DNA of 64,000 bases from Natronococcus sp. A-GB7 (GTDB taxonomy: Archaea > Halobacteriota > Halobacteria > Halobacteriales > Natrialbaceae). Location of the stretch: contig NZ_JARUKV010000008.1 of the NCBI RefSeq assembly GCF_029688865.1, forward strand, positions 109,018 to 173,017, in the 5' to 3' direction. The notes under the pieces were generated by a model, which ran no database searches, was not told where the DNA came from, and saw only the letters and a list, made by a program, of their open reading frames with translations. The number at the start of each line of letters is the position of its first letter. Position 1 is the stretch's first letter. The translations under genes and the position numbers were made by a program. Shown here piece after piece: positions 37,913-42,587 of the stretch.

Positions 37913-39160
37913 CTACTCGTACAGCGGGTTCTCCGCACACAGCGACTCGACGTCCTCGCGGACCTCGGCGATGACATCCTCGTCGTCGGGCGCGTCGATG
38001 ACGCGGGCGATCAGATCGGCGACCTCGCGGCAGTCGTCCTCGTCGAAGCCCCGCGTCGTCAGCCCGGGCGTACCCGCCCGGATGCCCGAGGGATCGAACG
38101 GCGAGCGGGTCTCGCCGGGAACCGTGTTCCCGTTGAGGACGATGCCGGCGTCCTCGAGCGCTTCTTCGGCGTCGCCGCCGGAGGTATCGGGGTGACTCTC
38201 GCGGAGGTCGACGAGTACGAGGTGGTTGTCCGTCCCGCCCGAGACCAGCGAGAAGCCGTGTTCCGAAAGCTGGTCGCCCAGCGCCTTCGCGTTCGCGACC
38301 GTCTGCTCGGCGTACTCTTCGAACTCGGGCTCGAGGGCCTCCTTGAATCCGACGGCCTTGCCGGCGACGTTGTGCATCAGCGGGCCGCCCTGTCCGCCGG
38401 GGAAGACGGCGGCGTCGATGTCGTCGGCGTACTCCTCGTCGCACATGACGATTCCGCCCCGTCCCGAGCGGATCGTCTTGTGGGTGCTTCCGGTGACGAA
38501 GTCGGCGGTGCCGACCGGCGAGCTGTGAGCGCCTGCCGCGACGAGCCCCGTAATGTGGGCGATGTCCGCGAGGTGATAGGCGCCGACGTCGTCGGCGGCC
38601 TCCTGGATGCGCTCCCACTCGACCTCGCGGGGGTACGCCGAGTAGCCGGAGACGATGATGTCTGGCTCGAACTCGGCGGCGTGGTCGGCCAGCCCCTCGT
38701 AGTCGAGGTAGCCGGTCTCGGGGTCGACCTCGTACTGCTCGACGTCGTAGAGCTGCCCGACGAAGTTCGCGGGGTGGCCGTGACTGAGGTGGCCGCCGTG
38801 GTTTAGATCCAGCGAGAGGATCTTGTCGCCGGGCTCGAGCATCGAGAAGTAGACGGCCTGGTTGGCCTGGGTACCCGAGTGGGGCTGGACGTTGACGTGC
38901 TCGGCGCCGAACAGCTCCGTGGCACGGTCGATCGCCAGCTCCTCGACCTCGTCGGCGTACTCACAGCCGCCGTAGTAGCGCTCGCCGGGGTAGCCCTCGG
39001 CGTACTTGTTCGTCAGGACGCTTCCCTGCGCGTCGACGACGGCGCGGCTGACGTGGTTCTCGCTCGCGATCATCTGGAGCGACTCCCGCTGTCGATCGAT
39101 CTCTCCCTCGAGTGCGTCGGCGACGGCGGGGTCGACGTCCCGGACGTGCTCGTGATCCAT
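37913..39160 (-). CDS. glyA: Serine hydroxymethyltransferase
   Basis: A 415-residue PLP enzyme converting serine and THF to glycine and methylene-THF. SENHVSRAV, the NVQPHSGTQANQAVYFS segment, LNHGGHLSHG, the PLP lysine K228 in GSTHKTIRSGRGG and GGTDNHLVLVDL are all present. A TATA-like ACTTATC about 28 nt upstream of the ATG suggests a leaderless transcript. It supplies glycine and one-carbon units to purD, thyA and folD-dependent steps. It diverges from the CHAT-domain gene. Confidence 0.96.
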   Translation of the reverse strand: MDHEHVRDVDPAVADALEGEIDRQRESLQMIASENHVSRAVVDAQGSVLTNKYAEGYPGERYYGGCEYADEVEELAIDRATELFGAEHVNVQPHSGTQANQAVYFSMLEPGDKILSLDLNHGGHLSHGHPANFVGQLYDVEQYEVDPETGYLDYEGLADHAAEFEPDIIVSGYSAYPREVEWERIQEAADDVGAYHLADIAHITGLVAAGAHSSPVGTADFVTGSTHKTIRSGRGGIVMCDEEYADDIDAAVFPGGQGGPLMHNVAGKAVGFKEALEPEFEEYAEQTVANAKALGDQLSEHGFSLVSGGTDNHLVLVDLRESHPDTSGGDAEEALEDAGIVLNGNTVPGETRSPFDPSGIRAGTPGLTTRGFDEDDCREVADLIARVIDAPDDEDVIAEVREDVESLCAENPLYE

Positions 39161-39300: not shown

Positions 39301-41388
39301 ATGATAGAGTGGGCGACGGCCGGGGAAACGCTCCACGTGATGGACACGGATAACGCCGAACTCACCGTTGTCGGGAGTGATCTCTCCGTCGTCGGATCGG
39401 GCCGCGAGATACCGCGTCCGGTCGACGAGACGATTACCGTCACGACCGACGAGCTTCGGTTTCCGAACGCCGTCGTCTACGCGTTCGCCCTCGGCTCGAG
39501 CGCACGGTACGAACTCGATCCGGGCGGCGAGTCCCTCTCGTTGCCGCCGGACGAGTACGTGATCGACGTCGACACGGAGATCAAGAGCTACCTCCGCTTT
39601 TCCGGACGCGCGACGATCCGGAAGACCGACGACTTCGAGTCGATCGTGGTCTCCTTTCCGGAGCCGATTCGGGTCATCGTCGGCCTTCGGAGCCGTCACG
39701 AACGCCCCGCGGGGACGATCACCGTCCCCGACTCGCCGGCCGACGTTGCGACGGCGATCTCCCATCTCGCCTCCTCGTACAAGACCACCAGCCCCGACCG
39801 CACGTATCCGACGCTGCGCGGTCATCCGCCGCTGATCGAGTTCGGCGACGAACTGGAGATCCCCGAGGGGATCCGATCCGAACACCGGGAGAGCGGCATC
39901 GAGTTCGTCGTCCCCCCCAACTACGAGTCGCTGTACGCTACCGCGTCGCTCGCGTACTATCTCCAGGCGACGGTGCGAACGACGAACAGCGACGACATCG
40001 TCGGAACGCGTCCGCGGCTTCGCGTTCCCGACCAGGGCGTCGAACGAGAGCTGTCGCCCATGCCCGGTCTCGAGCGGGACGTCGAACGACTCCTTCGAAA
40101 GACGTTCTTTCTGGACTGTCTGGCCCGCAACGTCGGCCCGTACGGGACCCAACTCGCCGAGTCCAGCCTGCTCGACGTCCTCGAACTCGACGCCGAACGG
40201 CTGTACGATGCGACGCCCGCGACGCGGCTCGCGACCTACCTCGACGTCCCCTACGAGGCGGTCGAACACCGCCTTCCGGAGTGGCACCTCGCGACGTACG
40301 TCGCTCCCGAGTACGAAAACGCCGAGACGCTGCCGTTCCTGCTCGATCGAATGAGCCTGCTGTACACGCCCCGCACCTCCGAGCTCGAGGGTCAGGAGCT
40401 GATCGAGCGCTCCCTGACCGACTTCTATCGCGGCGGAAACGGCTCTCCCGGGGGAGCCCACTCCGGACAGGTCGCGTCGGTCGACATCGTCAAACCCGAT
40501 CTCCGGGACGCTCGGGTTCACGGCTGGCTCGCAGACGGCGTCCCGATCGACGTCTTCAAATCGACGGCGACGGCCTACCACAACCGGCTGGGATATCTCG
40601 AGCGCTCGAGCGAGTCGACCTCGATCTGTGTCGTCCTGAACGATCCCGAGATGGCCGGGGAACACGACGACGTCGCCGAAATATACCGACGACGGTCGAA
40701 CGAGGTTCGCATGGACGTCACCGTCGAGGAGGGGCTGACGAGGGCCGAGCTCGCGACGGTGTTCGAGAGCGAGTACGACTTCGTCCACTACATCGGCCAC
40801 TGCGAGACCGACGGTCTGCGCTGTACCGACGGGACGCTCTCGGCCTCGAGCCTGGAGCAGTGTTCCGCACAGACGTTCTTCCTCAACGCCTGTGGCTCCT
40901 ACTACGAGGGGATGGAGCTGATCGAGAAGGGAAGCGTCGCGGGCGCGGTCACGTTCCGGAAGGTGCTGAACGATCACGCGATCAAGGTCGGATCGACGTT
41001 CGCCAAACTGCTCGTCCGCGGGTTCAGCATCGAGCGTGCGCTTCGACTCGCACGCCGTCGGATCATGATGGGCAAGGACTACGCCGTCGTCGGCGACGGC
41101 ACCCACTCGCTCACCCAGAGCGACAGCCGGCTCCCGACGACGATCACCCTCGAGGAACTCGAGAGCGACCGGTATCTGGCGACGTTCGACTGCTACTCGA
41201 CGCGTGCGACGGGATCGTACTACGTGCCACACACGACCGGCAGCGAGTACGCCTATCTCTGTGGCAACGAGTCCAGTTTCACGCTGGACCGATCGGAGCT
41301 TCTGTCACTGCTCAAGGAAACGGAGTCGTCGGTCATCTACGACGGCGATATCTACTGGTCCGGAGAACTGTGGTCGCGGTTGGTCTGA
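39301..41388 (+). CDS. CHAT-domain (caspase-like) protein
   Basis: A 695-residue protein. The C-terminal part (residues about 460-605) is a CHAT peptidase domain of clan CD: FVHYIGHCETDG supplies the catalytic His H500, TFFLNACGSYYEG supplies the Cys C531, and VAGAVTFRKVLND ... STFAKLLVRGFSIERALRLAR is the characteristic following helix. The first 400 residues are an unrecognised beta-rich then helical haloarchaeal region, and residues about 610-695 form an extra C-terminal domain. No signal peptide or TM segment is seen, so it is probably cytoplasmic. CHAT proteases cleave partner proteins in processes including antiphage cell death. No substrate gene is adjacent. A TATA-like TAACTAAT lies about 25 nt upstream. 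Confidence 0.75.
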   Translation: MIEWATAGETLHVMDTDNAELTVVGSDLSVVGSGREIPRPVDETITVTTDELRFPNAVVYAFALGSSARYELDPGGESLSLPPDEYVIDVDTEIKSYLRFSGRATIRKTDDFESIVVSFPEPIRVIVGLRSRHERPAGTITVPDSPADVATAISHLASSYKTTSPDRTYPTLRGHPPLIEFGDELEIPEGIRSEHRESGIEFVVPPNYESLYATASLAYYLQATVRTTNSDDIVGTRPRLRVPDQGVERELSPMPGLERDVERLLRKTFFLDCLARNVGPYGTQLAESSLLDVLELDAERLYDATPATRLATYLDVPYEAVEHRLPEWHLATYVAPEYENAETLPFLLDRMSLLYTPRTSELEGQELIERSLTDFYRGGNGSPGGAHSGQVASVDIVKPDLRDARVHGWLADGVPIDVFKSTATAYHNRLGYLERSSESTSICVVLNDPEMAGEHDDVAEIYRRRSNEVRMDVTVEEGLTRAELATVFESEYDFVHYIGHCETDGLRCTDGTLSASSLEQCSAQTFFLNACGSYYEGMELIEKGSVAGAVTFRKVLNDHAIKVGSTFAKLLVRGFSIERALRLARRRIMMGKDYAVVGDGTHSLTQSDSRLPTTITLEELESDRYLATFDCYSTRATGSYYVPHTTGSEYAYLCGNESSFTLDRSELLSLLKETESSVIYDGDIYWSGELWSRLV

Positions 41389-41587
41389 ACCGCTACGGGC
41401 CGCTGTACGTGCTGACGCCGCTCGCTCTGAGGAGCGAGCGACCGTCGCCGCTAGTTCGTACTCGTCGTTCGACACACATCCGCACCGCCTCGATCAGGTC
41501 ACCAAATGCACCCATGCAGCCCTACAATAACAGAAGGTGAACATAAGTTTTGTCGTAATTTCAGATATAAGTATAGATGGAATGGGC

Positions 41588-41672: not shown

Positions 41673-41735
41673 CGATCTTTCGGTCTCGCTCTAGCGGAAG
41701 CCATCGGTTCTGCCGAAAAAACGGCCACCAAAATT

Positions 41736-41758
41736 AAGTAACTGTACCTCGTTTACTT
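41736..41758. promoter_or_regulatory. Dyad near the start of the TbsP-like gene
   Basis: AAGTAA and TTACTT form an inverted repeat with an 11-nt spacer, ending 10 nt before the ATG. The left arm overlaps the only TATA-like element (AAATTAAG). The position suits autoregulation. Confidence 0.35.
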
Positions 41759-41768
41759 CTGTATTGGC

Positions 41769-42587
41769 ATGACCTCGAATTTACTCAATCACCAGATTGA
41801 CGATATCCTCGAATCGGTACTCGAAGACGCGAGCGGCGACGTGTACATGGTAAACCCTTCCCGGGATGCCATCGAGCAGTTCGTCTCCGTGGCGACCGCC
41901 TTCGAGGGCGACCTCCCGTCGGTGCACATGCTCGCCGACGAGCGGACGCTCAAAGACGTCATGGACGACTTCATCGTCGCCTCCAACGCCGCGGACCTCG
42001 TCAGTCAGGGCGCGCTCTCGTTGCGCACCCTCGAGGAGGCTCCCGAGAACTCCCTGCTCGTGACCGAGGACAGCGTCGTCGCCATCGTTCACGCCAACGA
42101 CCGCGTCGGCGGGCTCGTCACCGACGACGAGAGCTTCGTCACCGACACCCACGACGCCTACGCGACTCGCTGGGAGGACGCCTCGCAGTTCAACCTCCGG
42201 ACGCCGCCGATCACCGACGTCCAGAACACGCTCTCCGAGGAGATCAGCCCCGACGCACAGGAGGACTTCAGTGCGATCCTCGACTCGCTCGAGACCGCCC
42301 GCGGCGACGGCGACGGGCTCGACGAGGTCACGATCTCGCTGCTCGTCGCCGCGAAAAACGAGGCGCTGCTGTACGACATCAGCAAGTGGGGCGAGGACGT
42401 CGGCATCGCCAGTAAGGCGACGTTCAGCCGCACGAAGACCAAGCTCGAGGACATGGGCCTGATCGACACCGAGAAGGTCCCCATCGACGTCGGCCGCCCG
42501 CGCCTGCGCCTGAAGATCGGTGACGAGCGCCTCACCGAGGCCGACAACGGCCAACTCGCGACGGTCGCACAGTCGATTCTCAACTAA
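41769..42587 (+). CDS. tbsP: TbsP-like transcriptional regulator (DUF5821)
   Basis: A 272-residue protein starting MTSNLLNHQIDDILESVLED. Residues about 1-150 form an alpha/beta N-terminal domain (DVYMVNPSRDAIEQFVSVAT). Residues about 170-260 form a winged helix (LDEVTISLLVAAKNEALLYDI, DVGIASKATFSRTKTKLEDMGL, VPIDVGRPRLRLKIG). I recognise this as the DUF5821/TbsP family, whose Haloferax member acts with TrmB in glucose and gluconeogenesis gene control. That identification is from memory of the family sequence. It is striking that a TrmB gene is in the same window, 13 kb away. The gene appears monocistronic and possibly autoregulated. Confidence 0.78.
   Translation: MTSNLLNHQIDDILESVLEDASGDVYMVNPSRDAIEQFVSVATAFEGDLPSVHMLADERTLKDVMDDFIVASNAADLVSQGALSLRTLEEAPENSLLVTEDSVVAIVHANDRVGGLVTDDESFVTDTHDAYATRWEDASQFNLRTPPITDVQNTLSEEISPDAQEDFSAILDSLETARGDGDGLDEVTISLLVAAKNEALLYDISKWGEDVGIASKATFSRTKTKLEDMGLIDTEKVPIDVGRPRLRLKIGDERLTEADNGQLATVAQSILN

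What the first reader, a model, noticed from the sequence alone, without database searches (positions are those of the whole stretch)
39301..41388. Stand-alone CHAT (caspase-like) protease with unrecognised N-terminal region
The C-terminal part has the complete CHAT dyad (H500 in YIGHCE, C531 in FLNACGS) and the following fold segment that ends in ALRLAR, yet the first 400 residues match nothing I know. CHAT proteins in bacteria are activated proteases in defence and cell-death systems. Here the gene sits alone beside glyA, with structured noncoding DNA and a TbsP-like regulator downstream, and no obvious substrate gene nearby.
Basis: partly seen in the sequence, partly recalled or inferred. 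Interest (0 to 1): 0.75.

Follow-up and report, generated by a model that had tools for sequence, protein, structure and literature searches.

The report
Ancient haloarchaeal caspase-like protease family
A gene beside a sugar-metabolism regulator in a salt-loving archaeon belongs to a family that is present in nearly all haloarchaea sampled and is predicted to be a caspase-like cutting enzyme; standard protein libraries barely recognise it, and what it cuts is not known.

The parts
39301..41388 (+). CHAT-like (clan CD) cysteine protease gene, 695 aa
39301..39726 (+). [not shown]
39736..40275 (+). residues 146-325: predicted alpha/beta region (R173, P176 invariant in A2 and A3, R276 in A3); no confident relative
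40276..40605 (+). residues 326-435: first part of the gingipain/separase-type fold match, with the flexible linker inside it
40429..40485 (+). R377 (116 of 138 non-redundant active members) and the following low-confidence linker of variable length (11-88 aa between 377 and 409): candidate self-cleavage site (inference)
40606..41121 (+). residues 436-607: catalytic domain
40660..40662 (+). E454 codon: invariant acid just before the helix that follows the first catalytic-domain strand; predicted S1 acid
   Evidence: PMC4357240 passages
40798..40800 (+). H500 codon (catalytic His)
40891..40893 (+). C531 codon (catalytic Cys); N529 two residues before is invariant in active members
41122..41385 (+). 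residues 608-695: C-terminal beta extension with conserved G638 and W686
41769..42587 (+). tbsP, recurrent downstream neighbour of this branch of the family (66 of 71 loci; 14 of 24 genomes)
37913..39160 (-). glyA, divergent upstream neighbour (66 of 71 loci); probably a bystander (inference)

Best explanation
The gene encodes a member of a deeply conserved haloarchaeal family with a strongly conserved His500-Cys531 pair on a predicted gingipain/separase/CHAT-type fold, and it is predicted to be a cysteine protease that would cut after Arg or Lys and likely clips its own linker after Arg377. Residues 1-325 and the 326-435 subdomain would hold the catalytic domain in check until a signal arrives. 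In the branch of this gene the signal or target is likely linked to the neighbouring regulator TbsP; in the other branch it is likely linked to DUF7504/HalOD1 signalling proteins. Shown here: family, conserved dyad, joint replacement of dyad and E454 in the five degenerate copies that could be read there, predicted fold, two branches, recurrent neighbours. Inferred: catalysis, Arg/Lys preference, self-cleavage, the link to TbsP. My separate estimates: active protease 0.85; Arg/Lys preference 0.55; self-cleavage at R377 0.3; functional (not only positional) link to TbsP 0.35.
Against: No activity, substrate or expression datum exists. The Pfam CHAT score is below its cut-off. The degenerate copies are few and not independent: L113 and the three of L125 form one clade, so the joint loss may reflect only two or three events. 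The S1 assignment is by sequence order, not by measured geometry, and R465 in the same helix is basic in 91% of active members. R377 is absent in 22 of 138 non-redundant active members, and the helix before it lies in the low-confidence stretch. tbsP and this gene are separated by a median of about 420 bp, so they are not a tight operon. The 71 loci were found with patterns from this very protein, so they favour close orthologues. TbsP occurs in 3 of 24 genomes with no family member found (G037, G068, G129) and in G078, G006, G153 and G069 without a family gene within 1 kb. One close relative (G033, 58%) is not beside tbsP. Five of 71 loci lack tbsP nearby.
Confidence: 0.58

Rival explanations
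1. It is a defence or programmed-death effector: a CHAT protease that is switched on by infection or stress and kills or shuts down the cell.
For: The CRISPR-linked proteases Csx29 (TPR-CHAT) and SAVED-CHAT are fold neighbours here. Copies vary in number per genome and relatives occur on plasmids (25 records).
Against: No PADLOC hit for the protein; of nine further proteins scanned (other family members and neighbours), one neighbour at L107 gave a weak Csa3 hit, E 0.005, and eight gave none. 272 of 292 sampled haloarchaeal genomes have a member. The branch of this gene is syntenic with glyA and tbsP. No phage record matched.
Confidence: 0.12
2. The family supplies the unidentified caspase-like (Asp-cutting, zVAD-FMK-sensitive) activity reported in Haloferax volcanii.
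For: H. volcanii has a member with intact dyad, P0246; G078, whose protein gives a 100% match to Haloferax sp. MBLA0076, has one member. The caspase profile PF00656 and the CHAT profile PF12770 do not ring in H. volcanii, a control genome, which would explain why no gene was recognised. The protein behind the activity is described as still to be identified (PMC3615174: abstract, introduction, specificity part 1, inhibitor and roles sections, passages).
Against: No basic residue is invariant in 436-611 (R465 is basic in 91%) and the invariant S1-type residue is acidic, which predicts Arg/Lys rather than Asp at P1. The activity was also reported in Methanosarcina, Pyrococcus and Sulfolobus, where I have not looked for this family. 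The authors themselves raise a possible link to proteasomes.
Confidence: 0.1
3. The neighbourhood with tbsP is only conserved synteny; the protease has an unrelated housekeeping role such as processing of ribosome-associated or envelope proteins.
For: Intergenic distance of about 420 bp; TbsP persists without the gene; glyA is as constant a neighbour (66 of 71) as tbsP; other family copies in the own genome lie near contig ends beside rpsL/rpsG and fusA.
Against: The tbsP neighbourhood persists down to 41% protein identity (L063, L064), while the genes beyond tbsP are shared only in part of the loci.
Confidence: 0.35
4. It is a non-proteolytic scaffold that keeps the fold but not the chemistry.
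For: Degenerate copies without the dyad exist in the family (L113, L125 x3, L127; L119 and L122 gapped there).
Against: The dyad, N529 and E454 are kept in the other 479 ORFs and replaced jointly in the degenerate copies that could be read.
Confidence: 0.06

Closest known systems
CHAT domain proteins (PF12770): SAVED-CHAT and Csx29/TPR-CHAT
   Different: Below the Pfam cut-off; Pfam recognised no other domain, and the model shows a beta-sandwich and an alpha/beta N-terminal region; neighbours are glyA and tbsP
Gingipain (C25) catalytic domain
   Different: About 10% identity; I did not test for secretion
Separase (C50)
   Different: No significant sequence-level match to solved structures
Caspases/metacaspases (C14, PF00656)
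   Different: No PF00656 hit in the own genome; no invariant basic residue as the caspase S1 site has; the linker with R377 lies before the catalytic strands

Membership tests
CHAT (PF12770) | Pfam gathering score of 24 bits | tested here: not met
   16.1 bits; 6 of 18 family members hit CHAT at E <= 0.1, best E 1.5e-5
CHAT (PF12770) | His-Cys dyad at the ends of adjacent strands | tested here: met
   position by DSSP only, no distance measured
CHAT (PF12770) | clan CD fold of solved CHAT proteins | tested here: met
   [not shown]
CHAT (PF12770) | proteolytic activity | not testable with these tools
   needs enzyme assay
Caspase family C14 (PF00656) | profile match | tested here: not met
   0 of 8 genomes including the own one; Haloferax volcanii control negative
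Caspase family C14 (PF00656) | basic S1 pocket for Asp at P1 | tested here: inconclusive
   no invariant Arg/Lys in 436-611 (R465 basic in 91%), invariant E454 and N529; no coordinates to place them
Separase (C50) / gingipain (C25) | catalytic-domain fold with a preceding subdomain | tested here: met
   gingipain and separase rows, model range from about 326-336 to 607
Separase (C50) / gingipain (C25) | sequence-level relationship | tested here: not met
   best solved-structure hits with P0001 E 0.35 and with the profile of A2 E 1.2, none of these families
Known defence system | match to a PADLOC protein family | tested here: not met
   for this protein; nine further proteins, one weak Csa3 hit in a neighbour of L107

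The most novel reading that the evidence does not exclude
An ancestral archaeal caspase-like system: a clan CD protease inherited since before haloarchaea separated from an unnamed non-haloarchaeal family of the same phylum, split in haloarchaea into two branches wired to two regulators (TbsP; DUF7504/HalOD1), that controls transcription or cell state by site-specific cleavage and whose Haloferax volcanii copy accounts for the orphan caspase-like activity of haloarchaea.
Probability: 0.1. Interest if true: 0.88.

Novelty: new variant of a known kind. Interest (0 to 1): 0.6.

Why it matters
Haloferax volcanii was reported to show caspase-like activity higher than in any other unicellular microbe then measured, with the protein still to be identified (PMC3615174, sections read). 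A clan CD protease family that is present in 272 of 292 sampled haloarchaeal genomes, and that the Pfam caspase and CHAT profiles miss in whole-genome scans, turns that question into a knock-out experiment. A housekeeping rather than defence CHAT protease, wired to a metabolic regulator, would also widen what this protease class is known to do.

Tried and rejected
Relation between TbsP_N and DUF7504, which would have unified the two partners: no profile similarity (hhalign probability 0.1; BLASTP nothing). One search used a wrong motif and held one TbsP sequence; one search repeated it with 66. The FilR1_middle and DUF7436 hits of TbsP are sub-threshold.

Defence role: no PADLOC support apart from the weak Csa3 hit of one L107 neighbour. 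Noncoding RNA next to the gene: no Rfam match at E <= 1; promoter and terminator scan at or below its shuffles, with patterns that do not cover archaeal promoters.

Literature: searches for CHAT with haloarchaea (none, seven papers, 586 papers of which 20 were listed), HVO_2860-2862 (none), HVO_1237-1239 (none), TbsP (five), caspase with Haloferax/orthocaspase (90 of which 20 listed), separase/archaea/CHAT, DUF7504/HalOD1/TbsP (swamped by unrelated words, uninformative). I saw no description of this family in these listings; only open-licence PMC papers were searched. Papers: PMC3615174 abstract, introduction, part 1 of 2 of the specificity section, inhibitor section, roles section and passages; PMC4357240 passages; PMC13286277 two passages; all others search listing only. 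The TbsP paper (PMC11023807) is not held.

Full report
Observation. The ORF at 39301-41388 (+) encodes 695 residues with YIGH500CE and FLNAC531GS. Pfam gives only CHAT, below its cut-off (16.1 bits against 24); NCBIfam and PADLOC give nothing; comparison with sequences of solved structures gives nothing significant (best E 0.35 and 1.2).

A large, old family. The protein search returned 1124 homologues, of which the best 120 were listed; those whose source names an organism are haloarchaeal. The genome itself has matches at five places. In a sample of 292 genomes of the window's class, 272 have at least one match (as a rule at most three candidates were scored per genome, so copy numbers there are lower bounds, and a match need not be an orthologue of this gene). 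In a phylum sample with an alignment query, 36 of 43 genomes of the window's own order (the own one included) and 4 of 203 others have one; all four others belong to one unnamed family, f19. Three of those four keep the dyad. The plasmid collection gave 25 records, all haloarchaeal, the phage collection none. 'Stand-alone' in the sense of a lone gene is therefore wrong.

Catalytic residues. H500 and C531 are 120 of 120 in the first set. Over 486 family ORFs, 479 have both. The set is P0001-P0353 (the listings of three searches, the window protein and P0241 from L118) plus 133 ORFs of at least 450 codons from loci; the two parts overlap and many rows are near-copies. Of the seven others, five (L113, three in L125, L127) have both replaced and two (L119, L122) are gapped there; none keeps only one. 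After thinning to 70% identity, 138 active members remain; N529, M451 and E454 are 138 of 138, N447 137, D448 131. In the five degenerate copies that can be read at these positions E454 is gone as well. Joint replacement of the pair and its surroundings is what relaxed selection on one active site looks like, and argues that the others are active. But L113 and L125 form one clade, so this may be only two or three independent events, and no assay exists.

Specificity prediction. In a review of clan CD (PMC4357240, passages), Arg/Lys-cutting enzymes carry an S1 acid on the first helix (MALT1 D365, RgpB D163, and D95 in the proposed pocket of TbMCA2), while caspase-7 uses R87, Q184 and R233. Here the invariant E454 lies just before helix 455-468, after strand 440-446, and no Arg/Lys is invariant in 436-611, although R465 is basic in 91%. 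I predict Arg/Lys at P1. R377 (116 of 138 active members) stands at the end of a helix, 364-376, in a stretch of low confidence (361-390, pLDDT about 50) and before a linker of variable length: a candidate self-cleavage site. Both are untested.

Neighbours and branches. glyA(-)/this gene(+)/tbsP(+) recurs: in 71 loci from genome contigs, found with patterns from this protein, tbsP follows on the same strand in 66 (median gap 420 bp) and glyA precedes divergently in 66; the RNase P/proteasome cluster behind tbsP is shared only in part of the loci. In 24 genomes chosen, 53 family genes were found after joining the coordinates of split matches; 14 have TbsP_N within 1 kb, all downstream and on the same strand; 10 others have DUF7504 within 1 kb against about 0.45 expected by position; none has both. 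Of eight plasmid copies that I chose to read (of 25 records), five have DUF7504 beside them; in L113 a histidine kinase precedes, the one L115 neighbour scanned hit no family, and the neighbours in L117 were not scanned. A quick tree of 55 chosen rows gives two haloarchaeal clades at SH-aLRT 99: one holds the 28 tbsP-linked rows plus four degenerate copies; the other, of 19 rows, holds the 13 rows labelled DUF7504 (11 seen directly beside it, one in tandem with such a copy in L126, and the H. volcanii protein labelled by analogy with G078) and six others. The tree has no bootstrap, and its long outgroup branches (f19) make the root unsure. TbsP is reported to influence glucose metabolism with TrmB through gapII (PMC13286277, passage).

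Against my reading: TbsP is present in three of 24 genomes without any family member found and in four without a family gene beside it; one close relative is not next to tbsP (G033); the gap is wide for an operon; the CHAT score is sub-threshold; E454 was placed by order, not geometry; R377 is absent in 22 of 138.

Open question touched. PMC3615174 (abstract, introduction, specificity part 1, inhibitor and roles sections and passages read) reports very high LEVDase/VEIDase/IETDase activity in H. volcanii, inhibited by zVAD-FMK, with the protein still to be identified. H. volcanii has a family member with intact dyad (P0246, HBNXHx_1238); another Haloferax genome (G078) has one match, beside DUF7504; PF00656 and PF12770 do not ring in the H. 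volcanii control. The acidic S1 prediction speaks against Asp at P1, so I give this 0.1, but a gene deletion would answer it.

Verdict. Real, conserved and poorly covered by the profile libraries used; a new variant of the clan CD/CHAT kind rather than a new kind; function predicted, not shown.

Noticed in passing
window 41723-41775 and 41490-41570: Two stretches between this gene and tbsP are nearly unchanged in the window and four close loci, L001-L004; the first named ends at the tbsP start and is likely its promoter/leader, the other is unexplained.
   Followed up: partly
L108 9128-10653 and contig end; L109 8512 to contig end: In the own genome two contig ends suggest that family copies with DUF7504 and DUF5781 genes lie between rpsL/rpsG and the elongation-factor gene fusA; the join itself is not shown.
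   Followed up: no
L125 (G043): Three neighbouring degenerate copies with Glu for His and Pro for Cys, in the tbsP-linked clade: a dead subfamily whose role is unexplained.
   Followed up: partly
L119 4918-6624 and 8798-9730; L122 8276-10423 and 5213-6118: In two genomes of one genus (g27) a family member whose catalytic half is not recognisable lies about 2.2 kb from a second, diverged TbsP-like gene.
   Followed up: partly
L106 6062-9351: A HalOD1-DUF7504 gene overlaps the start of a family copy by 4 bases, suggesting co-translation.
   Followed up: no
L113 1731-6025: A plasmid copy without the dyad directly follows a GAF/PAS histidine kinase gene.
   Followed up: no
control list: Methanosarcina acetivorans is the only one of the 14 control genomes with a Pfam CHAT match; caspase-like activity was reported for that species too (PMC3615174 introduction).
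   Followed up: no
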